Notes under the pieces: generated by a model
What the model was told of the DNA's origin: nothing
Seen by the model: only the letters and a program-made list of their open reading frames with translations
The model's database searches: none
In this document: in pieces, positions 1,548 through 54,303 of the stretch
Numbering within the stretch: position 1 is the first letter of the stretch
Layout: each line of letters starts with the position of its first letter
Program-made: the position numbers and the translations under genes
Assembly: GCA_020186115.1 (NCBI GenBank)
Contig: WSYJ01000137.1
Coordinates: 1-64,000, forward strand
Direction of reading: 5' to 3'
DNA length: 64,000 bases
DNA from: Histomonas meleagridis
Taxonomy: Eukaryota; Parabasalia; Tritrichomonadida; Dientamoebidae

Positions 1548-1603
1548 GCGGGTGGGAGCGAGTGCGTAGCACGAAGCTCACATAGCGCTGTGTGTGTGTG
1601 TGT
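1548..1603 (+). repeat. Truncated end of the GC-rich TG-repeat element
   Basis: This GC-rich stretch contains GAGTGCGTAGCACGAAG followed by a run of TG dinucleotides. The same GAGTGCGTAGCACGAAG plus TG run forms the right end of the element at 2450-3104. The MULE-derived sequence begins directly after the TG run, so a second copy of the GC-rich element probably inserted into, and truncated, the 5' part of the MULE transposase gene. Confidence 0.5.
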
Positions 1604-2442
1604 TAAAAAACTCGATAGTACAGCAATGAATTCACTTGATTCTTTAGTAACGCGAGTTATTGAAATATCCGAATTATATGGCAGCAAATTAATAGCTTTT
1701 TTGACAGGTAAATCAATAAAAACACAAATTTTTGCTTGTTGTCACAATAGGACAATATATAATTGCAAAGTCGAAGCAAGATTTCAACTTATTAATGGAA
1801 TTGTAAAATTTATTTCAATTGATGAAAAGCATACCCACAGTGTTAATTCAAAACCTAACCATAGAAAACAAAATTTACTCACAACTTTACAACGAGCAGG
1901 AATTAAAGAAGCCATAATGCAAGGAGTGACATCAGGAAAAATTCGATTAAATATGAATCTTTTATGCACTAAAGATGTCTTATATGGCGCTAGAAGATCA
2001 ATTTTAAAGAATGAGAAAATTAATGATATGGAAAACTTACAAAAAGAAATGAATCTATGGAAAAATTGGAAAAGTATCATGTTAATTGATAATGAAGTAT
2101 TTAGTGGATGCTATGTTCATCATCTTCCGATATGTTTGAGCCCAATTTCCAACGATATATCCATTGTAGACGATACATCTTGCACTAATTATTACGGACT
2201 TCCTTTATTAGTGATGCTATGTGAAAATGAAAATGGAAAAAATCATTCTTTCATTTTCCTTCATTGTAAATCGGACCCAAAAAGCATTTATTGACTATTT
2301 TTTAAATGTTAAATAAAATGTTGGCGAAATTAGGTCGTTTGTTTATGATAGAAATCCAACACAAATTAATGCAATTGAAAAATGATGGCCAAATGCATTA
2401 ATTATATACTGCTTGATTCATATTGGACAGAATTTGATAAGT
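1604..2442 (+). pseudogene. MULE transposase, N-terminal half (decayed)
   Basis: The frame from the first ATG (1626) to 2294 has a FLYWCH/WRKY-GCM1-like zinc finger: Cys residues in IFACCHNRTIYNCKVEARF and the His pair in DEKHTHSV. The start of the MULE catalytic fold follows, with IVDDTSCTNYYGLPLL supplying the first Asp. After a frameshift near 2270 the next frame continues the fold as AFIDYFLNVK, VYDRNPTQINAIEK (second Asp) and PNALIIYCLIHIGQNL, broken by two stops. The gene then runs into an inserted element near 2443. The C-terminal half resumes at 4549. MULE transposases are DDE enzymes that move Mutator-like elements; this copy cannot make a full enzyme. Confidence 0.75.
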
Positions 2443-2449
2443 ATCAATA

Positions 2450-3104
2450 CACACACACACACACAACCCTGGCTAGCTAGGGCTATGCCCTGCGCTTTAG
2501 CCTACGGCTTGCTCTCGGCGCTATGCGCCTCGGTGTGTTGGTTCGCTCCTTCGTCGCTACCATATGATACTCACTATCGGAGAAGTGTGGAAACTATTAT
2601 TATTTGTTATTATTTACTGTTAAACATTACCGAAAAAATGTCGAAACTAGTTTTATTTGTTATTATTTACTGTTATACCACTATCGGAGGAATGTGGGAA
2701 CTAGAATTTTTTATTATTATTTACTGTTAAACATTACCGGGGGAATGTGGGAACTAGTTTCATTTGTTATTATTTGTTATTATTTATTATTATTTATTTA
2801 TTATTTATTTATTATTTATTATTTATTAGTATTTTGCATCATGAAAAATCATGAATGCCGCCATGAATGATACCATAAATGCTTGATGACTTGATGTAAA
2901 ATAATGAGCGCACAACAATACAAACATAAATAATTGATGACTTGATGGAATGTAGAGAATAATATTAATGGATATCATGTGGTAGCGACGAAGGAGCGGA
3001 CCAACACATCGAAGCTCGCGACGAAGGAGCGGCGAGAGCACAGCGGAGCGAACGAGTGCGTAGCACGAAGTGAAACGAGATGTGTGTGTGTGTGTGTGTG
3101 CTAA
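2450..3104. mobile_element. GC-rich fold-back element with CA/TG ends
   Basis: The left end is a CA run (2450-2466) and the right end a TG run (3081-3100). Inside these lie inverted GC-rich arms: GTGTGTTGGTTCGCTCCTTC then GTCGCTACCA near 2531-2562 on the left, and the complementary GGTAGCGACGAAGGAGCGGA then CCAACACATCG near 2981-3011 on the right. The middle holds an AT-rich minisatellite. No transposase is encoded; frames reported across it follow the repeats. It looks like a non-autonomous fold-back or MITE-like element. The high GC content contrasts sharply with the surrounding DNA. Confidence 0.55.
2573..2826 (+). repeat. Minisatellite and TTATTTA tract inside the fold-back element
   Basis: About four imperfect copies of a unit of 54-57 bp run from 2573 to about 2790. 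Each contains TTTGTTATTATTTACTGTTA, then a GGGAATGTGGGAACTAG-like segment. The array passes into a TTATTTATTA tract ending near 2826. Reading frames across it are repeat artefacts. Confidence 0.65.
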
Positions 3105-3106
3105 TA

Positions 3107-4545
3107 CTGACAATTTCCATTTGAATGGCAAAGTTAAACATATTCTCAAGTTAAATTAGTTTTACTTTCATTTTAGGATGGGAAAATTAATTGAAATTTG
3201 AATGCTTTACTTATATAAATCATTCAATAATTGAATATTTGGATAGAGGTTGGCGCCATTTCAGTTAATGAAAAATCTCAGCATCAAATCTTGCTTTCTA
3301 AAGCCAGAAAAAAAGCAATATATAAAAGAACAAGTCACAAAAGCAAGGAACAATGGATGTAAATGGCAAGATATCTTTGATTCTTCGTCAATTCCAAAAA
3401 GTACAATTCATAGGTGGGCTCACAAGGATATGTCTCTTGAGGCTCGAAAGCAAAGACAAGTACACCCTAGAAACAGGAAGCTGCTAACTGATGAGAAGGA
3501 AAGAAGCCTGATACAAATGGCAATTGATAAAAGAGCAAATCATGAAGTAGTTTCAATCGAATGGACAAGAGAAGCTATTGTAAGAATTACCAATGGGAGA
3601 GTTCAGAAAGCTTCTGATTAATATATCAGTAATTTTTATAAGAGGCATGGTTGGCCTAGCCGAAAAACCCAAGAAAGAAACAAAAAAGAAGTTCGAAGTA
3701 CCCTAGAGCAAGAAGTGAAAGATTTTCAAGATGAAGTTTCGAATTTTGTTTCTTCCAATTCCATTCCATCATCCAGGATATTTACCATGGATGAGACGGG
3801 GTTGTGGAATGGTTCTGTTTCACAACGCACTTACGTTAACCCATCCACAATGGATTCAGTAGGTGTTGTTTCACCTGGAGATCATAAAAGAGATACAGGT
3901 GTTGTGGCGCTATCTGCCGATGGAACCATTCATCCTTATTTCATTTCTCATTCTCCTCAAAAAACTAAGAAGGTCAATGGGAGAAGTGTTGTTGTTAAAA
4001 AGAAAGTGGCAGGAATGGGCTTTGATCAAATGAACCAATGGTCGGAAGAATTCGCAAACAAATACGGAAACCCTTCTGGAACTGTCTTGATCATGGATCG
4101 CCTAAGAGTTCACATGAATTCAAAAATTAAGAAAAACTTGGAAGAGAAGCATGTTGAGTGCTTTTATCTTCCACCACAAAATGCAAAGCTTGCTTCTGTA
4201 TGTGATGATTCTTTTTTTTCTGTTCTGAAGTCAAGAATATCGAAAATGGACACAACTACAACAGAAAAGAAAAAAAAAGGCTTTTTTTCACTTTGCGAAG
4301 AGTTTCCGGAAAAAATGGTTAAGAACTTTTATCATCATTGCGGATGGAATTTTGAATAAACGAAAAATCGACATTTTGCAAAATAATTGAAGTAAATGGT
4401 TTACGAACTAATGTAGATTTGTTGATAGTGTTGTGGTTTTAAAATTCTTGAAATGTTGCTTGGCAGATCCAAAATAGTAACTCTCTTGTGCAAAAGTGAC
4501 ACCGGTGGAAATCTATCGTTTTCCCAACTCTAGATAAATTGTCAG
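3107..4545 (+). mobile_element. Pogo/Tc-type DDE transposon, TA-flanked
   Basis: The element begins CTGACAATTT (3107-3116) and ends AAATTGTCAG (4536-4545), a perfect 10-bp terminal inverted repeat. TA dinucleotides at 3105-3106 and 4546-4547 are the expected TA target duplication of the Tc1/mariner/pogo superfamily. It encodes one transposase in a single frame, broken by one stop codon. Length is 1,439 bp. It sits in the right end of the GC-rich fold-back element. Confidence 0.75.
3268..4359 (+). pseudogene. Pogo-like DDE transposase with one internal stop
   Basis: The frame from ATG 3268 to TAA 4359 is open except for TAA at 3619-3621; the sequence after the stop (YISNFYKRHGWPSRKTQ) continues the same protein in the same frame. 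The N-terminal part has a helix-turn-helix region (WQDIFDSSSIPKSTIHRW). The catalytic part has the acidic triad: MDETGLW, LIMDRLRVH and SVCDDSFF. The second motif usually reads D-N-L; here it is D-R-L. The enzyme would cut and paste its own element. With one nonsense codon it is either recently dead or read through. GTTGGCGCCA just before the start resembles an E2F site. Confidence 0.75.
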
Positions 4546-4548
4546 TAT

Positions 4549-5385
4549 ATTAATACACCTCCTCGAAGAAAAAGAACATTGGCTACCAAGTCTAACAAAT
4601 AAATACATGCACGCTGACAATAATACTTCAAATCGAGTTGAAGGTTTCTTTGGTAGCTTAAAGAACTTAACTGATCATCAAATTCTTTCACTACCATTGA
4701 TATTTCGCGCTGTATATTTAAGGGGTGAAAGATTAAGAATATTATCAGCATCAGATAAACGAATTGAAATGCCTGATGACATAATTTTGAGAGAAGATGC
4801 ATTAAAAATAGGATCAGTTGCACTTAGCATTGTTTTAAATGAATACAATGAAATGAATAGAGTTGGATGCATTACTGAATACAATTCGGAATGCTGCAAT
4901 ATTTGTATTATGTTTGGGATTCCATGTAAGCATTTTGTCTTAGAAAGAATTAAAGAAGATAGAATGCCTCTCCTTTTACTTGATGATTTCCTTCCAAGAT
5001 GGAGACATTCTGATAATTTAAATATAAATTTAATTGATAATAGTGTGGTTACTGTTCAAAAAAATAAAACAAATGATTCTGATTGGTCGTATTCAAATTG
5101 TGTTGCAAAATTTGAAAGATATTTCAGCTCAGCTTCGAAGAATCAAAAAAACCAGGATATTTTGCATGCAATTCTAGATAATTTGTTTTCGATTGAACAT
5201 CAATCTGGGATAAATGAAGAAATACTTTTACCACCAAATTTTTTAGTTCCTGGTCGACCTCAAACACATCCAAGAAATAATACTGAATTTGGAGCACCAG
5301 AGAAAAAAAGCAGTATAGATGTAGCATATGTGGGCAGAAAGGTCATACAGCACCAAGGTGCCCATTAGCTAACTTAACTTCTTAA
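4549..5385 (+). pseudogene. MULE transposase, C-terminal half
   Basis: The MULE frame resumes with LLEEKEHWLPSLTNKYMH and ADNNTSNRVEGFFGSLK, the conserved block after the catalytic core. A SWIM-type zinc finger follows (CCNICIMFGIPCKHFVL), then LLLDDFLPRW. The frame stops at 5368, but the next frame supplies a CCHC zinc knuckle (CSICGQKGHTAPRC) ending at TAA 5383-5385. The two join if the seven-A run at 5303-5309 had eight. The annotated ATG at 4607 is internal to the ancestral gene. Confidence 0.75.
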
Positions 5386-24320: not shown

Positions 24321-27176
24321 ATGAATCTTGAAGAAAACAAAGTTTTCCTCACTGACACATCTGATTCAAAAACAGGTGATGAAAAATTTCAACGAAATAA
24401 TGAAGGAGGTGAGAAAACTGAAATAGAGAATTCAGAAAACATAAATCAAGATAATCAAGATTTACCTACTGAAACAGAAACAACTGAAAAACAACCTACA
24501 GAAGAAGAAGATAAACTTGAAGTAAAAATTGGTTATGAAAATGAACAACAAGAAAAAGAAGATGAATTAAATTCTCAATCAAATCAAGAAGAAGAAATAA
24601 TTCCTCAAGTAAAAATTGAGAATGAACAAGACCAACAAGAAACTCAAGAAAAAATTCAAGAAGAAAAAAATTCAAATACACAAAAAACTCCAAAACCCAA
24701 ACAAACTCATCACAAGAAACCTAAGAAAATTGAAAGAGATACTGAAGAAATCAGTATTCTTAACTTTGAAGATAAATTCAAAGATAATGAAAAACCTTAT
24801 TTCACAGAAGAATCGACAGTAATTGCCATGTGTAGGCTTGGGATTAAACCATCTCATCTCATGAAACCAACAGAAGCTGATTTTTCTGAATATCCAGATT
24901 TCCCAGATGTTCGTAAGAAAGTTGAAACCACTTTATTAAATCGGCGTGAGAATCTTATTAAGCAAATAAAGCAAGAGCGCGAAAAAGTACAAAAAGAAAT
25001 TGAAATGCGGAAAACTATGAGTGGACCAATCACTCAAACCACAAGAACTAATCCAGGGAACAACAATACATCGAAATCTAATTCGAGCGCTGAACAAATT
25101 GAACGAATCCGAAGAATGCAAAAGAAAGAAATCGAGCAACTTATTACAAATGAGTTAATTTATGAACAAACGAAACGTGACGAAGAAGAACTTCAACGAA
25201 AACGCGACGAACGAATGCGGCAAATGAACATAGAGATCCAACAAAAGCAAAAAATCGAAGCGGAAAAGCGGAAGCAAAAGAAAGAAGCAATAACAATTCG
25301 AATTGCAGAGCGTGAAAAGCAATTAATCGAACTAAAACGTAAACAAGAGAAAGAAGTCGAAAAGAATCAACAACACATTGCAGAGATGAAAGCTAAAAAG
25401 CAAAGGGAAATGATGCAATTAGAACTTGAGCGCCAACGACGAGCAGTAATTCGTAGGGAAACAATCGAAAAACAAAATGAAGAAGATCGAAAGAAAATGA
25501 TTGAAAAACAAAGGCAACAATTAGAACGTGAACGTCTTATGGAACAACGACGTCAAGAACAAGTTATAAAGATCAAGAAACGAAACATGAAAATATTTAA
25601 TGAGCAAAAACAACGTTATACACAAGCACAACAAAAAGCGCAACAAGAGAATGAAGAAAAGCGACAAATTATGGAACAAAAAGAAATACAAAATCGGAAA
25701 CGATATGAAAATGTACTTAAAGAACGTGATTTACAAGCGCAACAAAAGAAAATCCAAACAGAACAACTTATGGAACGTAATAAGAACGCGAGAAATAATA
25801 TCGAAAAAGCTAAAGAAGAACGAATTAAAGAACTTGTGTTTAAGGAAAATAAAGATCAAGAAAGACGCGATGCGATTTTACATGATAAACTCGAGCGATA
25901 TAAACGCGAAAGACAAATCGAAAAAGAGAAATTACAATATATCGAAAAGATGCGCGAAGAACAAGAAAAGAATGAACGGAAACAACGAGAAGCATATTAT
26001 AAGAAATCGGAAGAAATCGATAAAAATGTCGAAAATGTTAAGAAATTACAAAGCGAAGAATTAGCGAAGAAAATCGCATATCAAAAGTTAAAGGATAAAA
26101 TTAGAGATGAAAATGCTGAACGAATGAACGCGCAAAAAGAATATATGTTACAAACTAAAGGAGAAATTAATCGACAACGAGAAAAAAGAGCACTTGAATA
26201 TGTACAAATACAAAAAGATAACGCAATGAAAAGAAGAAAAGCATCAAATGATTTGGAAATGAAGAAGTTAAAAGTGAAAGAAGAGTTTAGAGAAATGATG
26301 AAACAAGGTAACCATATCGATATAGATTATTTAGCAAAGAAATATGATATAGATGTGAATGAACTAAAGGCGAAAATAGAAAAAGCAAGAAAAAGAAATC
26401 ACTCAGTAAATGGTGAGCAAAATAAAACAAATGAATCAGAAACAGAAAATGAAAATGAAATAGAAAATAATAACTCAAATAAAAAGCCAAAAAGAAATAA
26501 AAAAGAAATTGATGAAAAACAAAAAACAAAGAATAAAGAAAATAAAAATGAAACTGATGATAAGAAAATAAATGAAATTGTAATCGATAATAAAAATAAC
26601 ACATCAAATGAAGTACAAAATGATGATGAAATTGCAATTGATAATAAAAATAATACAACAAATGATCAGAAATTAAATGAAATTGTAATTAATGATAAAA
26701 ATAATACAACAAATGATCAGAAATTAAATGAAATTGTAATTGATTATAATAACAACACAACAAATGATCAGAAATTAAATGAAATTGTAATTGATGATAA
26801 AAATAACTCATCAAATGAATTACAAAATGATAATGAAATCGTAATTGATGATAAAAATAATACAACAAATGATCAGAAATTAAATGAAATTGTAATTGAT
26901 GATAAAAATAACTCATCAAATGAATTACAAAATGATAATGAAATCGTAATTGATGATAAAAATAATACAACAAATGATCAGAAATTAAATGAAATTGTAA
27001 TTGATGATAATAACAACACAAGCGATGAACAAAACGGAAACGAAACACTTGAGAACAACGAAAATGCGAATGAAGCTAAAAGTACAAATGAAACAAAAAC
27101 TGAACAAAATAAAAACGAAACAGAAGCAGAAAATAATTTACGAATCCAACCACCAGCAATAGAAAGAACAACATGA
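24321..27176 (+). CDS. Long charged coiled-coil protein with Asn/Asp-rich C-terminal repeats
   Basis: The 951-residue protein has an acidic N-terminus (about 1-150) and a short conserved-looking region at about 155-205 (FTEESTVIAMCRLGIKPSH). Over 400 residues of continuous E/K/R/Q-rich helix follow (about 210-690), with motifs such as RDEEELQRKRDERMRQMN that recall trichoplein-like proteins. From about 750 to 905 it carries tandem repeats of LNEIVIDDKNN and NDQK type. No enzyme motif is seen. A structural role at flagella, basal bodies or cytoskeleton is an inference from composition only. Confidence 0.7.
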   Translation: MNLEENKVFLTDTSDSKTGDEKFQRNNEGGEKTEIENSENINQDNQDLPTETETTEKQPTEEEDKLEVKIGYENEQQEKEDELNSQSNQEEEIIPQVKIENEQDQQETQEKIQEEKNSNTQKTPKPKQTHHKKPKKIERDTEEISILNFEDKFKDNEKPYFTEESTVIAMCRLGIKPSHLMKPTEADFSEYPDFPDVRKKVETTLLNRRENLIKQIKQEREKVQKEIEMRKTMSGPITQTTRTNPGNNNTSKSNSSAEQIERIRRMQKKEIEQLITNELIYEQTKRDEEELQRKRDERMRQMNIEIQQKQKIEAEKRKQKKEAITIRIAEREKQLIELKRKQEKEVEKNQQHIAEMKAKKQREMMQLELERQRRAVIRRETIEKQNEEDRKKMIEKQRQQLERERLMEQRRQEQVIKIKKRNMKIFNEQKQRYTQAQQKAQQENEEKRQIMEQKEIQNRKRYENVLKERDLQAQQKKIQTEQLMERNKNARNNIEKAKEERIKELVFKENKDQERRDAILHDKLERYKRERQIEKEKLQYIEKMREEQEKNERKQREAYYKKSEEIDKNVENVKKLQSEELAKKIAYQKLKDKIRDENAERMNAQKEYMLQTKGEINRQREKRALEYVQIQKDNAMKRRKASNDLEMKKLKVKEEFREMMKQGNHIDIDYLAKKYDIDVNELKAKIEKARKRNHSVNGEQNKTNESETENENEIENNNSNKKPKRNKKEIDEKQKTKNKENKNETDDKKINEIVIDNKNNTSNEVQNDDEIAIDNKNNTTNDQKLNEIVINDKNNTTNDQKLNEIVIDYNNNTTNDQKLNEIVIDDKNNSSNELQNDNEIVIDDKNNTTNDQKLNEIVIDDKNNSSNELQNDNEIVIDDKNNTTNDQKLNEIVIDDNNNTSDEQNGNETLENNENANEAKSTNETKTEQNKNETEAENNLRIQPPAIERTT
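26570..27030 (+). repeat. In-gene tandem repeat (17/18-codon units)
   Basis: Alternating units of 51 and 54 bp encode NTTNDQKLNEIVIDDKN and NSSNELQNDNEIVIDDKN. Two larger units of about 105 bp near 26770-26980 are almost identical, indicating recent duplication. Long frames on the opposite strand across this region are shadows of the repeat. Confidence 0.8.
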
Positions 27177-29305: not shown

Positions 29306-29800
29306 CTAAAAGTGGTGACATTTGGAAGAGTTACTTTCAGTATTTGTGTCGATTTCTTCTTGAAGTAATTTGACTATTTCTATATGACCATTTGTGGATG
29401 CCAACATAAGTGCTGTTTTATATATTTAAAATAATTTCCATATATTATTAGTAATTAGAAAGTCATTAAAACAAATTTTAAATAAAGTAAATATAAATCT
29501 TTAGCATTAATATTGATTCCATTTTGTTCGAGGAGTAATTTAACTATTTCAAGATAACCTTTTTGAGCTGCAGACATAAGTGCTGTTTTATATATTTAAA
29601 ATAATTTCCATATATTATTAGTAATTAGAAAGTCATTAAAACAAATTGCATTTCTATCATTAATATTAATTCCCTTTTGTTCAAGAAGTAATTTCACTTG
29701 TTCTATATTACCATTTTTAGTTGCACGAATAAGTGCTGTGCCAAATGTTTTAAACAAGTACCAAATATTATTTCAAAACAATAAATTTAGAATATGAATA
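29306..29800 (-). repeat. Three ankyrin units separated by AT-rich spacers (minus strand)
   Basis: Reading on the minus strand, the first ORF of the gene ends its repeat at 29800. Intact ankyrin units follow at 29739-29650 (90 bp), 29586-29497 (90 bp) and 29416-29306, the last ending with TAG at 29308-29306. Units begin with Thr-Ala-Leu (TALIRATKNGN, TALMSAAQKGY, TALMLASTNGH). Spacers are 29740-29799 (60 bp), 29587-29649 (63 bp) and 29417-29496 (80 bp). The last two are identical over about 60 bp, although the units they join differ. Spacer sequence and length match the plus-strand array at 47068-49580. Confidence 0.8.
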
Positions 29801-31068
29801 TATCTTAAATTTATTTTATTATTTTCTATTACATATTTTATAAGTTCTGTGTTTCCTGATTGTAAAGTTAAAATAAGCATAGAGTTTGGAATTTTTCGTT
29901 TTTGAAGGAAATGCTTAACAAGGTATAAGTTTCCATGTGTTACATACTCATTAAGAATTCTGTCAACTATATGAAGTCCGCTTTCTTCTATATCTGAAAG
30001 CATTTCAAAATTTCCTCGACTCATAAAAAAATTTTCCTCATCTTTCATGTAAACATCGATTGAATACCTTAGTAACAGTATTGAATATAAGAGTCGGTAA
30101 AAGTCATTGAATTTTGTGCCAAATGAAATTTGTAGTTGAGGCTCTATATCAAATGTATATGTGTGAAAAATTCGGTTATCATTCCACACTTCTTCTAAAT
30201 TATTATCATAAATATATTTTAATATATCATTTCGATGATATTCCATTGCTATTTCATATGCACCTTTAAATGATGAATGATTTTGTTCGCATAAATGAAT
30301 GATTTCGATGTTTCCACCTGCAATTGCATATTTACCTGTGTTTTTCACATTTGCATTATTCATAAGTAAATATTTAAAGCATTTAACTGATCCAAAAAAT
30401 GCTGCATAATCAATTAATGTAACATTTTCTTGATTAATAAATGAACATCTTTCATAAAGTGATGGTTTAATTATTTGATTAAAATCAAAAAAATTTTGTG
30501 ATGATATTTCTTGAAGTTTTTCGATTTCATCATTTCGAATGATTTTGACAATTTCATTAGGATTAATTCCTTCTTTAACATATTTCTTATGTAGTTCCCA
30601 ATCATTTTTTGAAAGTTCTGTAAGGTTATAAAAGAAATCTTTAAATTTGGAATCTTTATATGAAATAAGGTACATGTTTTCGGAAACATTTTCTTCATTT
30701 GTTCTGTAATGCACATAATATTTTGCATTAACATTTTTGGCGATACTTACATCTGCCAAATTCCGATCAATCATTTGTGCAATTAAAAAATGCGCTTCTT
30801 GAGAATCAATTAATGAAATATTTTTGACGAATGATTCAATAATTTTGGTTTTCGGTTCTTTTGCTTGAATTAATTCCATAAAATTTAAGTATATATCAAA
30901 TGATTTATTGCGTACACAAAATGCATAATAAATTAAATTACTTACAGTAATGCCAAATGTTATTGGAAAATCTACATCAAACAATGACATTATTTCCTGA
31001 AATGATTTGTCAAGATTTTCTTCAGCTAAATTTAAAACTATTTGTTCGAATGCAATCATCTTTTGCAT
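29773..31068 (-). CDS. Trichomonad ankyrin/DUF3447 protein, first ORF
   Basis: The ORF starts at ATG 31068. Residues about 1-160 are a helical N-terminal region. A conserved block follows (KEGINPNEIVKIIRNDEIEK, YERCSFINQENVTLIDYAAF, FGSVKCFKYLLM), which is the DUF3447-like segment of trichomonad ankyrin proteins, then GKYAIAGGNIEIIHLCEQNH. It ends in an ankyrin-like repeat (ILTLQSGNTELIKYVIENNK). After INLRY (29800) the frame runs into an AT-rich spacer and stops at 29773, but three more intact ankyrin units follow to 29306. The complete product may therefore need removal of the spacers. Such proteins are very numerous in trichomonads; their role is mostly unknown. Confidence 0.75.
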   Translation of the reverse strand: MQKMIAFEQIVLNLAEENLDKSFQEIMSLFDVDFPITFGITVSNLIYYAFCVRNKSFDIYLNFMELIQAKEPKTKIIESFVKNISLIDSQEAHFLIAQMIDRNLADVSIAKNVNAKYYVHYRTNEENVSENMYLISYKDSKFKDFFYNLTELSKNDWELHKKYVKEGINPNEIVKIIRNDEIEKLQEISSQNFFDFNQIIKPSLYERCSFINQENVTLIDYAAFFGSVKCFKYLLMNNANVKNTGKYAIAGGNIEIIHLCEQNHSSFKGAYEIAMEYHRNDILKYIYDNNLEEVWNDNRIFHTYTFDIEPQLQISFGTKFNDFYRLLYSILLLRYSIDVYMKDEENFFMSRGNFEMLSDIEESGLHIVDRILNEYVTHGNLYLVKHFLQKRKIPNSMLILTLQSGNTELIKYVIENNKINLRYIHILNLLF

Positions 31069-40590: not shown

Positions 40591-41744
40591 TTTATATCTT
40601 TATGCAATTAATTTTTTTAACATACTTTAATTCTATCTAAGTCATCGTGTGTCGCACCCCGAAGAACTTCCCCTCCTGATTAAGGTTTATGACCCCTTGT
40701 GCCAAATTACTTTCAACTTTATGAAATTCTAAGATATTAAATTTATTTCAATACCATTTTGTACCAAAACAATTTCTCTGTCCAACTATTTGGAGACAGG
40801 CATTCAAATACAACTTCTACAAAATGATATTAAAATTTTAAAGTATTTGTTTTAAAAAAGTAAATTAATTGTTGTTACCTTGTTTCTGTCGATAATGTAA
40901 AGGCATGGAACACTGATAAAACTTAAATTAACCTTATTAAAAACTTGGAATAGCTTAAGAATACCAAGGATGATAAGCGCTTGTTAAAATATTCAAATAG
41001 CTTATAAATCTAAATGAAAAAAACCATTTTTTTTGTTGTTCATTTATCGAGAAAATGTATTTGTTTTTTCTTTTTGAATAAATCGATTTGTTTGGACATA
41101 TAATTCGCTTCCAAGATACTGCTGGATACAAGAAAGGATCTGTCATCAAAAAACAATAAGGAATTTTTCTAAAAAAAAATGTTCATTGTTCACAAAGATA
41201 ATTTCTGTGAAAATGTTTTTGGATGAATTAGATTTTAATTTGACTGTAAAAGGCAGTTAGATTTTAAAATAATTGTAGATTTTTAGAAATGACTATATAG
41301 AAAAGTTGAAAATTTTATTTGAAAGCTCGGTATTGAATTATTGTTGTATTGAGTGATTTTGATCGTTTTGAGTGCAAAATTGTTTTGTATCAAGTTAAAA
41401 GCGAATTCTCATGAGAAGAGAACATTATCACCTCACTTATCATTGTTTATGACTCGTATCGATTAAATTTTTGATGACAATTTGAATTTCAGATGGAAAA
41501 CAATAGGTTTCATACATTTTTGATGAAAATTTGAAGGTTTTTTGTTCGAGTTAAAATCAAGAATATATCTTCCAATTCCAATCATCAAATTGATGAAAAA
41601 ATATGAAATATATCTATTAATGACTTTCAGCATTCGTTTTATTGACTATATTTCCAACACATTTCATGATGAAAATATTTTTCATAAAAATATAAAATAT
41701 ATAAATTTTAAAAACAAAAAGGAAACAGCAAATCAACAGATCCA
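40591..41744. other. Decayed region with protein-like scraps
   Basis: Besides the unassigned minus-strand scraps (VEVVFECLSPNSWTEKLFWY near 40745-40830, VPCLYIIDRNK near 40880-40915, DPFLYPAVSWKRIICPNK near 41090-41145), no intact gene is visible. The scraps lie in the same direction and could be remains of one gene or of mobile DNA. Confidence 0.35.
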
Positions 41745-41775
41745 TTATAATAAATTTTAAATAAAAGAAATAAAT

Positions 41776-42911
41776 ATCTTTAGCATTAATATCAATTCCT
41801 TCTTGTATTAAAATATAATTAACAAGTTCAATATTTCCTGACTCTGATGAAAATACTAAAATATCTTTCGGAATTTGATTACTTTCAAAAAAATGTTTAA
41901 TGAGAAATATGTTTCCAATTTTTGTTGATTCATTAATAATGTTTTCGCAAATTAGCATCCCTTCTTTTTGTAAAAATATAAAAATTTCATAATTATGAGA
42001 TGAAATACACTTCTTTCCAAATTCTTCTAAATTATTAATTTCAGCAATTTTATTTTCATAAAGATATTTAAAGATATCATTTCGATGAAATTCAATTGCT
42101 ACTTCATATGCACCTTCAAATGATGAATGATTTTGTTCACATAAATGAAAGATTTCTTCATTTCCACCTGCAACTGCATACCTACCCGTATTTTTTATAT
42201 CAGAACCATAAGTAAATATTTAAAACATTTAATTGATCCGAAAAATGCTGAATAATCAATTAATGTAACATTTTGTGTATTAATAAAAGAACATCTTTCA
42301 TAAAGTGATGGTTCAATTGTTTGGTTAAAATTAAAATCATTTTGTGATGATATTTCTTGAAGTTTTTCTATTTCATCTTTTCGAATTATTTTTGCAATTT
42401 CATTGGGATTAACACTTTCTTTGATTAATTTCTTATGAATTTCCCAATCATTCCTTGAAAGTTCTTCAAAGTTTCCCATTTTTCGTTTCAAATATTCATT
42501 TTCTTCTGGAAATTTTTTGGACATGTAATGTATAAAATACGATTCTTCTCTCATCTGTACAACTATGTTTGATTCGCATAAATTTTCTTGAATCATTCTC
42601 TCAAGAAAATAATTTGATTCTTGAGAATATATATTTAAAATCATTTGCAAAAAAACTTTATGTATTTTACTTTGAATTTGTTTCTTATCTTCAATTTTTT
42701 TTATTTCTTTAATGAAATTCATATAGACTTCTAAATCATTCATACCTGCTACAAATGATGAATAAATTATTTGACTAATAAGTAAGTTAAATGAATACTG
42801 ATAATTATTATCAAGTATATCAAACACTGAAATAGCTGCTTGAACAAGATTTTCTTTATTTAAGGAAAATATTTTTTGTTGAATAAACTGAATTGTTTCC
42901 CAATTGTTCAT
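41776..42911 (-). pseudogene. Trichomonad ankyrin/DUF3447 gene, frameshifted copy
   Basis: The ORF starts at ATG 42911 with the same N-terminal plan as the other copies (KESVNPNEIAKIIRKDEIEK, YERCSFINTQNVTLIDYSAF, FGSIKCFKYLLM). At about 42206 four bases appear to be missing where the sister copies read M-N-G/N, so the frame breaks. The next frame continues the homology (GRYAVAGGNEEIFHLCEQNH and onward) to EGIDINAKD at 41776. A spacer start (ATTTATTTCTTTTATTTAAA) follows, but no further ankyrin units do. The array has been lost downstream, so this is a broken, truncated member. Confidence 0.75.
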
Positions 42912-46023: not shown

Positions 46024-47067
46024 ATGGGAAATGCATTTAGCAAAATGGAAAAACAAACAAAACACAAGCAAATACTTCATTCTTCTAATAAGTTTATTCA
46101 AGATTTAGAATCTCTTGAAAAAATTATTTTTGAATTAAACGAAGATAACATCAATGATTCCATTAATATGATGATTAATTTAATCAATAATGATGATAAT
46201 ATATCAACATATTCAAATCTTATTCTAAATAGATTAATTTATTCAGCAATTTTTTCACGAATGCAAGATTTTAGCATTTATATTGAATTCATTAAAAACA
46301 TTGAAATCAAAGAAAGAGAATTCTTTAACAATAATAAATATTTAATTGATTCATTTAAAGAATATCTTTTTAGATTAGAAACACAAGAATCATATTTCAT
46401 TCTTGAAAAAATGATTGAAAATGAAATGATTGATCAAAGGTATTTTGATAACATATCATCATTTTGTTCTAGATATTATTACACGAAAGTAAGAGATAAT
46501 CAATTTAAAGATGAATTATTTAATTATGACGAACTTTCACAGGAAGATTTTGAATTTCATAAACGATTAATTAAAGAAGGAGTTAATCCAAATGAAATAT
46601 TGAAAAATATTCGAAATGATGAAATAGAAAAACTTCAAGAAATAACATCACAAACAAATTTTGACTTTAACCAAATGATTAAACCATCACCCTATGAAAG
46701 ATGTTCATTTATAAATGAAGAAGATGTTACATTAATTGATTATGCAGCATTTTTTTCATCTGTTGAATGTTTTAAATTTTTGCTTATGAATGGTGCAAAT
46801 GTAAAAAATACAGGTAAATATGCAATTGCAGGTGGAAATGAAGAAATTATTCATTTATGTGAACAAAATCATTCATCATTTGAAAATGCATATGAAGCAG
46901 CAATTATATATCATCGAAATGATATTTTTAAATATATTTATGAAAATAAAATCGTTGAATATCCTGTTAAAAAATTTCTTGAAATAATTTTAAGTAATAA
47001 ATTTGTTAATTTTGAAATATTTAATTTTTATCTTGAAAAAGAAAGAATTGATATTAATAGAAAAATT
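46024..47067 (+). CDS. Trichomonad ankyrin/DUF3447 protein, first coding block
   Basis: The ATG at 46024 gives MGNAFSKM, a good N-myristoylation signal (Gly2, Ser6). An upstream TTG at 45994 also opens the frame. The block has the family's helical N-terminal region and the conserved IKEGVNPNEILKNIRNDEIE, YERCSFINEEDVTLIDYAAF, FSSVECFKFLLM and GKYAIAGGNEEIIHLCEQNH segments, then a final partial ankyrin unit ending RIDINRKI at 47067. The frame then enters an 80-bp spacer and stops at 47079. Fifteen intact ankyrin units follow. Myristoylation would place the protein at membranes; its function is not known. Confidence 0.75.
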
Positions 47068-49580
47068 ATATATTCATAATATATCAAAATTATTTTTAAT
47101 ATTTAATGATTTAAAATTGATATTGGTAATAATTCAAAATATTTAAAACATTACTTATTTTAGCATCAGAAAAAGGACATTTAGAAATAGTTCAATTTCT
47201 TCTTGAACAAAAAGGAATTAATGTTAATGCTAAAGATATTCATTTGTTTTATTTAAGATTTATCTTAATAATATAATATTTCATAACAATATTTGGAAAT
47301 TATTTAAATTATTTAAGACTGCGTTTATATATTCTATTGAAGAAGAACACGTGGAAATAGTAAAATTATTTCTGAAACAAAGCAAACTTGATATGAATAA
47401 AAAAGATATTTATATACTTTATTTAAAATTTATTATAATAATATGATCTCTCCTAACAATATTTGGAAATAATATAAAATATTTAAAACAGCACTTTTTA
47501 GAGCATCTGAAAATGGCTATACAGAAATAGATAAATTACTTCTTGAACAAGAAGGAATTGATATTAATGCTAAAGATATTTATTTGTTTTATTTAAAATT
47601 TATTTTAATAATTTTATATTTCAAAATAATATTTGGAAATTATTTAAATTATTTAACACAGCACTTATGTTTGCATCTAGAAATGGTCATACAAAAATAG
47701 TTAAATTACTTATTGAACAAGAAGGAATTGATATTAATGCTAAAGATATTTATTTGTTTTATTTAAAATTTATTTTAATAATTTTGGACTATTTCAAAAT
47801 AATATTTGGAAATTATTTAAATTATTTAGAACAGCACTTATGTTTGCATCTTTAAATGGTCATACAGAAATTGTTAAATTACTTCTTGAACAAAAAGGAA
47901 TTGATATTAATGTTAAAAATATTTATTTGTTTTATTTAAAATTTATTTTAATAATTTAATATTTCAAAATAATATTTGGAAATTATTTAAATTATTTAAT
48001 ATAGCACTTATTGAAGCATATGAAAAAGGTAATACAGAAATAGTTAAATTACTTCTTGAACAAGAAGGAGTTGATGTTAATGCTAAAGATAATATTTATT
48101 CAAAAAATATCAAATATTATTTGAATATTTGGAAATTATTTAAATCATTTAATACTGCACTTACTTGTGCATCAGCAAGAGGTTATACAGAAACAGTTAA
48201 ATTACTTCTTGAACAAGAAGGAATTGATATTAATGCTAAAGATAAAATAAATTTAAATAATTTGATATTTCAAAATAATATTTGGAAATTATTTAAATTA
48301 TTTATGACAGCTCTCATAATAGCAACTAAAAATGGTGATACAGAAATTGTTAAATTACTTCTTGAACAAAAAGGAATTGATATTAATGCATTTGATTTTT
48401 CATTGTTTTTATTAAAATTTATTAAAACAATATTTTATTCAAATTTAAAATTTGGAAATCATTAAAATTATTTAACGAATCACTTATATATGCAATTGAA
48501 AATTGTGACATAAGAATAGTTAAATTACTTCTTGCACAAAAAGAAATTAAGATTAATACTATAATCATACATTTGTTTTATATAAAATATATTTTAATAG
48601 CTTGATATTTTTGATTAATATATGGAAATTACAAAAAATATTTCAAACACCACTTATGGTTGCATCTAAAAAAGGTTATATAGAAATAGTTAAATTACTT
48701 CTCCAACAAAAAGAAATTGATGTTGATGCGAAAGATATTTATATATTTTAATTTTTGTTTGTTTTAATAATTTTTTATTTCTAAACAATATTTGGAAATC
48801 ATAAAAATAATTTAAAACAGCATTTTTATCAGCAATTCAATGTGGTCAATATGAAATCCTTAAAATATTTCTTGAACAAAAAAAAGGAATTTGTCTTGCT
48901 AATAGAGATATTTATATTTTTTATAAATAATTTAATAAAATAATCTCGAATTTCAATGTGATAATTGGAAACTATTTTTGATATTTAATACACCGCTTAT
49001 AATAGAAACGCAAAGAGGTCATATAGAAATAGTTAAATTACTTATTGAACAAGAAGGAATTGATATTAATGCAAAAAATATTTATTAATTCTATTTATAA
49101 TTTATATGAATTATATGATATTTAAAAATAATATTTGGAAATTATTTTTAATATTTAATACACCACTTCTCATAGCATCTCAAAATGATCAGACAGAACT
49201 AGTTAAATTACTTCTTGAACAAGAAGGAATTGATATTAATGCTAAAAATATTTATTTGTTTTATTTAAAATTTATTTTAATAATTTGATATATCAAAATA
49301 ATATTTGGAAATTATTTAAATTATTTTGGACAGCACTTATGTTAGCATCTTCAAAAGGTCATACAGAAACAGTTAAATTACTTCTTTGTAAAAATAATAT
49401 TGATGTAAATACTAAAAATTTTTTTTTAATCTAGTTAAAGTTTAGCTAAAATATTTGATATATTAAAAATGTATTTGGGAATTATTTAAATTATATGAAA
49501 CAGCACTTAGTTTAGCAGTTAAAAAAAATTACACAGAAATCATTAAAATGCTTGAAGAAAAAGGTGCTAAATTCGAGTAA
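47068..49580 (+). repeat. Array of 15 intact ankyrin units and 15 AT-rich spacers
   Basis: Coding units (each starts with a Thr-Ala-Leu type triplet and most end Asn-Ala-Lys-Asp) lie at 47148-47237, 47318-47407, 47488-47577, 47658-47747, 47831-47920, 48001-48090, 48154-48243, 48307-48396, 48477-48566, 48647-48736, 48817-48909, 48990-49079, 49160-49249, 49330-49419 and 49500-49580 (ending in TAA). Thirteen are exactly 90 bp, the eleventh is 93 bp and the last is 81 bp. Twelve spacers are 80 bp, one 83 bp (47748-47830) and two 63 bp (48091-48153, 48244-48306). None of the units has a stop or frameshift. The 80- and 83-bp spacers shift the frame. Spacers share ATTTATTTGTTTTATTTAAA at the start and AATAATATTTGGAAATTATT near the end. 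The repeat period is 170 bp. Confidence 0.9.

Positions 49581-53775: not shown

Positions 53776-54303
<528 letters not shown>

What the first reader, a model, noticed from the sequence alone, without database searches (positions are those of the whole stretch)
47068..49580. Metronomic ankyrin array: intact 90-bp units, each preceded by a frame-breaking 80-bp spacer
Fifteen ankyrin units in a row have no stop or frameshift, and all begin and end in the same phase. Between them lie 15 very AT-rich spacers: 12 of exactly 80 bp, one of 83 bp, two of 63 bp. The 80- and 83-bp spacers (2 modulo 3) always shift the frame, so no long protein is possible unless they are removed. Constant spacer length with intact coding units argues against simple decay. 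The spacers have no constant GT...AG ends and lack the known trichomonad motifs (GTATGT start, ACTAACACACAG end). Candidate explanations: (a) an unusual, repeatedly duplicated short intron; (b) homology arms for shuffling silent ankyrin cassettes; (c) a pseudogene array kept uniform by recombination. If a 68-nt piece were removed, each unit would regain about the usual ankyrin period, which favours (a).
Basis: partly seen in the sequence, partly recalled or inferred. Interest (0 to 1): 0.88.

Follow-up and report, generated by a model that had tools for sequence, protein, structure and literature searches.

The report
Ankyrin genes cut into single codons
In what looks like the poultry parasite Histomonas, a large family of ankyrin genes is interrupted by hundreds of 17-letter inserts with single codons stranded between them, and those codons make sense only if every insert is skipped, which fits no intron or ribosome-hopping rule compared here.

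Summary
The array is real: 15 stop-free ankyrin units and 15 AT-rich spacers (12 of 80, two of 63, one of 83 bp). But a spacer is not one 68-nt insert. An 80-bp spacer is four 17-nt inserts, each followed by one codon (positions 18-20, 38-40, 58-60, 78-80), and the four codons spell the missing ankyrin loop x-x-Gly-x. All 15 window spacers give Gly. In 143 80-bp spacers of the genome these codons hold 0 stops (27 expected); in 81 from 21 later loci, 1 (19 expected). Most spacer lengths follow 12+17m. The 17-mers lack GT...AG and a branch site. Where 17-mers are almost identical, the stranded codons x2, x3, x5 and surface codons of the units differ in 71-80% of comparisons, while Gly and framework mostly stay: a hypervariable, DARPin-like repertoire. 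One contig has exactly the length of the largest contig of the published Histomonas meleagridis assembly. Best reading: the 17-mers are removed from the RNA as ultra-short, non-canonical introns. Removal is inferred; no RNA or peptide data were available. Ribosome bypass and recently dead genes remain possible.

The parts
46024..47067 (+). first coding block of gene A: DUF3447-type ankyrin N-terminal part, ends in the first repeat that is followed by a spacer
   Evidence: Pfam DUF3447 E 3.1e-8; open, no inserts
47068..47147 (+). spacer 1 (80): four 17-mers, codons CAA AAT GGT AAA (Q N G K)
47148..47237 (+). ankyrin unit 1
47238..47317 (+). spacer 2 (80): codons AAG AAT GGA AAG (K N G K)
47318..47407 (+). 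ankyrin unit 2
47408..47487 (+). spacer 3 (80): codons AAA GAT GGA AAA (K D G K)
47488..47577 (+). ankyrin unit 3
47578..47657 (+). spacer 4 (80): codons AAA TAT GGA AAC (K Y G N)
47658..47747 (+). ankyrin unit 4
47748..47830 (+). spacer 5 (83): four 17-mers, five codons AAA TGG ACT GGA AGA (K W T G R)
47831..47920 (+). ankyrin unit 5
47921..48000 (+). spacer 6 (80): codons AAA AAT GGA AAT (K N G N)
48001..48090 (+). ankyrin unit 6
48091..48153 (+). spacer 7 (63): three 17-mers, codons AAT CAA GGA AAT (N Q G N)
48154..48243 (+). ankyrin unit 7
48244..48306 (+). spacer 8 (63): three 17-mers, codons AAA GAT GGA ATG (K D G M)
48307..48396 (+). ankyrin unit 8
48397..48476 (+). spacer 9 (80): codons AAA TTT GGA AAC (K F G N)
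48477..48566 (+). ankyrin unit 9
48567..48646 (+). spacer 10 (80): codons AAA GAT GGA CAA (K D G Q)
48647..48736 (+). ankyrin unit 10
48737..48816 (+). spacer 11 (80): codons TTT TTT GGA AAA (F F G K)
48817..48909 (+). ankyrin unit 11 (31 codons, one extra)
48910..48989 (+). spacer 12 (80): codons ATA CGA GGA AAT (I R G N)
48990..49079 (+). ankyrin unit 12
49080..49159 (+). spacer 13 (80): codons ATA GAT GGA AAT (I D G N)
49160..49249 (+). ankyrin unit 13
49250..49329 (+). spacer 14 (80): codons AAA GAT GGA TGG (K D G W)
49330..49419 (+). ankyrin unit 14
49420..49499 (+). spacer 15 (80): codons AAA GAT GGG GAA (K D G E)
49500..49580 (+). last ankyrin unit (15) and stop codon TAA (49578-49580). 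Span 46024-49580 is 3557 nt; less 58 x 17 it is 2571 nt, a multiple of 3
29306..31068 (-). gene B, second gene of the same kind: spacers 29740-29799 (60), 29587-29649 (63), 29417-29496 (80); span 1763 nt less 10 x 17 is 1593, a multiple of 3
   Evidence: Pfam DUF3447 E 1.5e-7
41617..42911 (-). gene C, which looks like a broken copy: frame change near 42.2 kb, array stops after the first repeat (read by eye)

Best explanation
The array is one ankyrin gene whose repeats are interrupted by 17-nt inserts at codon boundaries. In the usual spacer there are four, lying after D1, x2, x3 and G4 of the repeat (D-x-x-G-x-T), so that x2, x3 and G4 are single-codon 'exons' and x5 opens the next unit. SHOWN by sequence: the 17+3 architecture, selection on these codons, its presence in 20 of 21 later loci of the family, and hypervariability of the surface codons. 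INFERRED: that the 17-mers are removed from the RNA (ultra-short, phase-0 introns with ends close to RTTT...ATTT and no GT-AG) by a machinery not yet described, giving a long ankyrin solenoid with a variable binding face. Because one 20-bp period is one codon plus one complete insert, adding or losing periods would never shift the frame, so loops can grow one residue at a time (up to 15 periods in one spacer). What the variable face binds is unknown; host, bacterial or prey partners are guesses.
For: (1) Codon register: in 143 80-bp spacers the triplets at 18/38/58/78 hold 0 stops, 27.0 +- 3.6 expected (0 of 5000 column shuffles reach 0); by far the largest deviation of the 20 offsets. (2) Later loci, chosen by their N-terminal protein only: 21 loci, 81 80-bp spacers, 1 stop against 19.3 +- 2.7, z -6.8. 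In the 14 loci never looked at before: 60 spacers, 1 against 14.7 +- 2.5, z -5.4. (3) A second spacer type built of 2 to 15 20-mers (8 loci, 31 of 33 spacers counted): 134 codons, 0 stops, 18.2 +- 2.4 expected. (4) The codons spell the ankyrin loop: Gly at G4 in 193 of 228; K/N/E/D lead at x2 and D/Y/N at x3; Gly in 15 of 15 window spacers. (5) Core-to-core distances of 42+17m for m=0..5: 12, 2, 1, 35, 228, 4 cases; 344 of 363 distances up to 135 nt fit 17m plus whole codons (227 of 238 and 117 of 125), where 35% of lengths would by arithmetic. (6) 63-bp spacers are the same with the first 17-mer absent: 32 of 35. (7) Genes A and B both become multiples of 3 after subtracting 17-mers. (8) Units: 9 stops against 114 +- 7. 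(9) 2659 pairs from different arrays with 17-mers 2.6% different: x2, x3, x5 residues differ in 73, 79, 80%, six surface residues of the units in 71%, G4 in 7%, synonymous third positions in 9%.
Against: No RNA or peptide evidence. Of 223 distinct 17-mers from the later loci 46 start with GT, none ends with AG, 2 hold CTAA[CT], although the genome has U2 snRNA with GUAGUA and a U6-like RNA with ACAGAG (read by eye; the U6 match, 43.7 bits, is just under its cut-off of 44). Three-nt exons would be hard for a spliceosome (recalled). 19 of 363 distances do not fit, several by 1 or 2 nt in T runs, and the one spacer of L059 is among them. G4 is not Gly in 35 of 228; in the 14 new loci it is Gly in only 43 of 60. 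The register is not the only one that deviates: offsets 7, 13 and 16 in the first set also beat all 400 shuffles, with milder deficits (15 for 20.9, 10 for 15.5, 3 for 8.4); offset 4 in the later set has z -5.1 (15 for 27.2) and in the 14 new loci z -5.4 (6 for 15.5), as large as register 18 by z though not by ratio; offsets 9, 10 and 12 show excesses. Column shuffles ignore shared ancestry, which may cause this. The six surface codons were picked after I had seen that they vary.
Confidence: 0.6

Rival explanations
1. Programmed ribosome bypassing: the 17-mers stay in the mRNA and the ribosome hops over each, as in T4 gene 60 or in Magnusiomyces mitochondria.
For: Explains a fixed length, lack of splice signals and inserts at codon boundaries; 81 inserts in one yeast mitochondrial genome are a precedent, some without perfectly matched codons (PMC5009743, passages).
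Against: Take-off codon equals the last triplet of the 17-mer in only 13 of 912; no stop at the take-off position (0 of 143 at spacer positions 1-3, where 0.0 are expected); 58 hops per protein would be needed in gene A.
Confidence: 0.07
2. Recently dead or silent arrays: the 17-mers were once removed, or the units serve as donors in recombination, but no such gene is now expressed.
For: No expression data; some copies carry stops or broken frames (gene C; 9 stops in 212 units); 19 of 363 distances do not fit.
Against: 1 stop in 912 stranded codons, surface residues more variable than synonymous sites, and fitting spacers in 20 of 21 later loci: selection looks current. Even donor arrays would need a read copy that handles the 17-mers.
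Confidence: 0.2
3. One reading: one short intron of about 68 nt, duplicated with the unit.
For: 68 = 80 - 12 restores the repeat length.
Against: Would delete three codons that encode x2, x3, G4 and avoid stops where they vary; does not explain 29-, 46-, 60-, 63- and 300-bp spacers with one rule.
Confidence: 0.03
4. Read-through: the spacers are translated as linkers.
For: 63-bp spacers are in frame; related ORFs in ENA data read through them. Inner in-frame stops are somewhat fewer than expected (17 against 23.5 +- 2.3).
Against: 80-bp spacers shift the frame; 12 of 25 63-bp spacers hold an in-frame stop. The database holds only ORFs, so the ENA examples are chosen for being open.
Confidence: 0.03
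5. RNA-level removal by something other than splicing (for example an editing-like or endonuclease and ligase pathway).
For: No splice signals in the 17-mers; U2 and a U6-like RNA are present but their usual partner motifs are absent from the inserts.
Against: No candidate machinery was looked for.
Confidence: 0.07

Closest known systems
Ultra-short spliceosomal introns (Stentor 15 nt, Bigelowiella 18 nt, Trichomonas type B 23-25 nt; PMC12316389, abstract and passages)
   Same: Very short and T-rich, in protein-coding genes, one case in a related parabasalid
   Different: The Trichomonas ones have GT...AG and a branch motif, and that paper reports no multiple introns per transcript (up to two per gene in T. 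stableri); here 17 nt, no GT-AG, 58 in gene A, exons of one codon
Translational bypass elements: T4 gene 60 and Magnusiomyces mitochondria (PMC5009743, passages)
   Same: Short frame-breaking blocks inside coding sequence that must be skipped
Designed ankyrin repeat proteins, DARPins (PMC8683736, passages)
   Same: Constant ankyrin framework with a randomised surface that forms the binding face; positions 2, 3, 5, 13, 14 are variable in both (DARPin position numbers recalled, not read)
   Different: Natural gene family, and three of the variable codons sit beside or between inserts
DUF3447 ankyrin proteins of trichomonads
   Same: N-terminal DUF3447 and ankyrin repeats
   Different: The one named trichomonad relative listed, a 586-aa Tritrichomonas musculus protein at 27% identity, was not read and its gene structure was not seen

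Membership tests
U2-type spliceosomal introns | GT at the 5' end and AG at the 3' end | tested here: not met
   0 of 223 distinct 17-mers of the later loci are GT...AG; 46 start GT, 0 end AG
U2-type spliceosomal introns | branch-site motif matching U2 | tested here: not met
   CTAA[CT] in 2 of 223; U2 with GUAGUA present (read)
U2-type spliceosomal introns | removed from RNA | not testable with these tools
   no RNA data held
Trichomonas-type introns | GTATGT...CTAACACACAG | tested here: not met
   exact pattern with a 5-35 nt gap occurs 0 times in the whole genome, control 0, so the genome's own intron motif is also unknown here
Translational bypass | matched take-off and landing codon | tested here: not met
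   13 of 912; Magnusiomyces cases do not always need it (PMC5009743)
Translational bypass | insert kept in mRNA but absent from protein | not testable with these tools
   no RNA or peptide data
Ankyrin repeat proteins | D-x-x-G-x-T-A/P-L repeat of about 33 residues | tested here: met
   Pfam Ank 1.7e-16 on an open two-unit stretch read through a 63-bp spacer; loop codons give x-x-G-x in 14 of 15 window spacers and x-x-x-G-x in the 83-bp one
DUF3447 family | PF11929 over its cut-off | tested here: met
   33.9 bits against 26.9
Variable-receptor repertoires (lead only) | hypervariable contact residues in a constant framework, many genomic copies | tested here: met
   unit surface codons were picked after seeing them vary
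Variable-receptor repertoires (lead only) | somatic or programmed assembly and ligand binding | not tested
   one assembly, no binding data

The most novel reading that the evidence does not exclude
H. meleagridis carries a new, non-GT-AG class of 17-nt introns, probably in the thousands (1242 lie in the sampled spacers; the rest is extrapolation from about 100 matched family members), so dense that single codons are exons, concentrated in a family of hypervariable ankyrin receptors. The 20-bp period (one codon plus one complete insert) is a frame-safe diversification device: codons of the binding loop can be added, lost or exchanged between near-identical 17-nt arms without ever breaking the protein.
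Probability: 0.4. Interest if true: 0.97.

Novelty: categorically new. Interest (0 to 1): 0.93.

Why it matters
If the 17-mers are spliced, they define a class of intron without the GT-AG rule, near the lower size limit, with exons of three nucleotides, in a genome reported to have at most one intron per gene (PMC8529796, passage). It would make 'how small and how signal-poor can an intron be' directly testable. If they are hopped over, it would be a very large case of bypassing outside mitochondria and phages (precedents recalled or from passages of PMC5009743; no wider search was made). Either way gene models that expect ordinary introns would miss a large, fast-changing ankyrin repertoire with a DARPin-like variable surface, in a parasite of economic weight. 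The sequence test used here (stop avoidance by register) is cheap and can be run on other genomes.

Tried and rejected
Single 68-nt intron, read-through linker and simple decay: rejected as above. Canonical intron motif: exact GTATGT...CTAACACACAG gives 0 hits in the genome, control also 0, so it could not supply a reference set of ordinary introns. Other genes of the window: a coding-potential scan listed 10 frame changes. It is too blunt to judge: it caught one of the 15 spacers of gene A and none of gene B, and I did not inspect the places outside the ankyrin genes. 17-mers in other gene families were not searched for. Database relatives: nine N-terminal relatives come from ENA contigs of 1.3-2.4 kb; 8 of 9 end at or shortly after a repeat's end, where a spacer would begin (P0002 ends inside a repeat). 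P0005 is at most 55% identical to any of the 101 matches in this genome, so probably from another organism. They look unspliced and carry no RNA evidence. Of 163 array relatives 120 were listed and 20 read; most of the 20, by eye, read through 63-bp spacers in frame; these were not compared with this genome, so their organism is unknown. A proteome paper lists one ankyrin protein (KANK1) in H. meleagridis, with nothing to link it to this family (PMC10063853, passage). Linkage between variable sites is weak but not zero: 36 site pairs, z from -0.6 to 5.0 (which still included the duplicate L060). pool L054-L061; L060 overlaps a C36 locus and is left out. Distances over 135 nt were dropped from the length counts (22 of 260 consecutive core pairs in the first set; not counted for the later set). 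One search leaves out 2 of 33 type II spacers (227 and 307 bp), whose length is no multiple of 20. Literature: no paper held 'Histomonas meleagridis', genome, ankyrin and introns together; 'ankyrin' occurs 0 times in the main text of the genome paper; of 37 papers with three of four terms on trichomonads, ankyrin repeats, introns and hypervariability, 12 were listed and none bears on this by title and abstract start. Searches were the other intron and transcriptome searches; listings only, apart from PMC8529796, PMC6679479, PMC12316389 and PMC10063853, of which passages were seen. Not all relevant papers are in this library.

Full report
WHERE IT IS. The window (29% GC) is part of contig C73 of a 43.28-Mb, 121-contig genome. 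I take it to be that assembly. The paper reports 573 introns, at most one per gene.

OBSERVATION. Gene A starts with a DUF3447-type ankyrin block at 46024 and ends with TAA at 49578-49580. Between lie 15 stop-free ankyrin units and 15 spacers of 80 (12), 83 (1) and 63 (2) bp. Similar spacers occur at many places in the genome (76 matches, a lower bound). In the loci fetched mainly by that query 143 of 175 are exactly 80 bp.

THE SPACER IS NOT ONE PIECE. Laying 80-bp spacers over one another shows four triplets that behave differently from the 17-nt stretches between them. These triplets, at 18-20, 38-40, 58-60 and 78-80, are x2, x3, G4 and x5 of the ankyrin repeat D-x-x-G-x-T. In the window the codons read QNGK, KNGK, KDGK, KYGN, KWTGR, KNGN, NQGN, KDGM, KFGN, KDGQ, FFGK, IRGN, IDGN, KDGW, KDGE: glycine in all 15, written GGA, GGT or GGG. 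Over 143 80-bp spacers x2 is led by K, N, E, D; x3 by D, Y, N; G4 is glycine in 132; x5 is led by K, N, Y, E, R.

STATISTICAL TEST. If the triplets are read, they should avoid stops beyond what their base composition gives. Column shuffles expect 27 stops in register 18; none is seen. Of the other 19 registers, 7, 13 and 16 show milder deficits that no shuffle of 400 reached, and a few show excesses. The units give 9 stops where 114 +- 7 are expected; their other two frames give 364 for 391 +- 8 and 1127 for 1114 +- 9. A second spacer type, made of 2 to 15 20-mers, gives 134 codons with no stop where 18 are expected.

LATER LOCI. The model was written down. Loci L054-L059 and L061 and L062-L075 were taken by similarity of the N-terminal protein, not of the spacer. 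The first seven had meanwhile entered pooled counts; the last 14 were new. All 21 carry spacers; 20 of 21 have at least one that fits, L059 has a single spacer and it does not. 117 of 125 distances fit 17m plus whole codons. In 81 80-bp spacers the register triplets hold 1 stop against 19.3 +- 2.7 (z -6.8); G4 is glycine in 62 of 81. In the 14 new loci alone: 88 of 92 distances fit, 1 stop against 14.7 +- 2.5 in 60 spacers from 13 loci (z -5.4), glycine in 43 of 60. Against this, offset 4 also deviates (15 for 27.2, z -5.1; 6 for 15.5, z -5.4 in the 14 new loci), and offset 20 weakly. I have no tested explanation; linked sequence families, which the shuffle breaks up, are a likely one. Register 18 differs in being nearly empty (ratio 0.07 against 0.39) and in spelling the ankyrin loop.

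LENGTH SERIES. Over both sets, distances between ankyrin cores cluster at 42, 59, 76, 93, 110 and 127 nt, that is 42+17m, with 12, 2, 1, 35, 228 and 4 cases; most others differ from these by whole codons. 19 of 363 do not fit; several are longer or shorter by one or two bases in T runs. Distances over 135 nt were not counted. Copies related by descent are not independent, so the values matter more than the counts. Inserts seem to fill the loop from its 3' side: of two copies with one insert, one has it after G4 and the other is ambiguous (C55), the copy with two has them before and after G4 (L056; both read by eye), and 63-bp spacers lack the first one (32 of 35).

WHAT THE 17-MERS LOOK LIKE. 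Among 223 distinct 17-mers of the later loci the ends are the most conserved part (A or G, then TTT at the start; ATTT at the end), the middle is loose, and GT...AG never occurs. Two U2 genes, read as carrying GUAGUA, and one U6-like RNA with ACAGAG, just under the Rfam cut-off, exist in the genome (read), so an ordinary spliceosome is likely present, but its usual signals are absent from the inserts.

HYPERVARIABILITY. Among 2659 pairs of spacers from different arrays whose 17-mers differ by 2.6% on average, x2, x3 and x5 differ in residue in 73, 79 and 80% of pairs and six surface codons of the units in 71%, while G4 differs in 7%, eleven framework residues in 13% and synonymous third positions in 9%. 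196 such pairs within one array give 59, 71, 67 and 59%. Two cautions: choosing pairs by 17-mer similarity lowers the 17-mer figure by design (not the other figures), and the six surface codons were picked after seeing that they vary. 159 of 176 nine-site combinations are distinct (with one duplicated locus). This is what strong diversification of a binding face in a homogenised framework looks like; selection, gene conversion and focused mutation were not separated.

EXTENT. One N-terminal query found 101 matches in the genome, a lower bound. 1242 17-mers lie in the fitting spacers that I sampled. The window holds a second such gene (29306-31068, minus) and what looks like a broken copy (41617-42911, minus). 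ENA proteins of unknown, probably other, organisms show the same units with 63-bp spacers read through.

MECHANISM. That the codons are read and the 17-mers are not is well supported. How is not. RNA removal is preferred because bypassing would need dozens of hops with hardly any matched codons (13 of 912) and because dead arrays do not explain present stop avoidance and diversification. RNA or peptide evidence is the missing step.

Noticed in passing
29306-31068 (minus): Second complete gene of the same kind, with spacers of 60, 63 and 80 bp that parse by the same rule.
   Followed up: yes
41617-42911 (minus): Probably a broken member of the family: frame change near 42.2 kb and the array ends after the first repeat.
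   Followed up: partly
53779-54299: Very long simple repeats, TTA x 95 followed by TTAT x 61, both nearly perfect.
   Followed up: no
26557-27021: Tandem repeat with a 105-bp period inside a 951-aa ORF rich in charged residues.
   Followed up: no
1590-5368: Several adjacent ORFs that look by eye like pieces of transposase genes (one has a DETGLW motif); not tested.
   Followed up: no
306-820: Coding potential changes frame within a short gap, so this may be a frameshifted gene.
   Followed up: no
L039, L040, L042, L043, L045, L046, L047, L050: Second spacer type made of 20-mers (commonest 17-mer ATATGTTTTAATAATTT plus a codon), 2 to 15 periods per spacer, so loops of up to 15 residues.
   Followed up: yes
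L051, L052: Two U2 snRNA genes of this genome, on different contigs, both over the Rfam cut-off.
   Followed up: no
80-bp spacers, offset 4 (positions 4-6, 24-26, 44-46, 64-66): Fewer stop triplets than shuffles expect in the later loci, though these positions lie inside the 17-mers; unexplained.
   Followed up: partly
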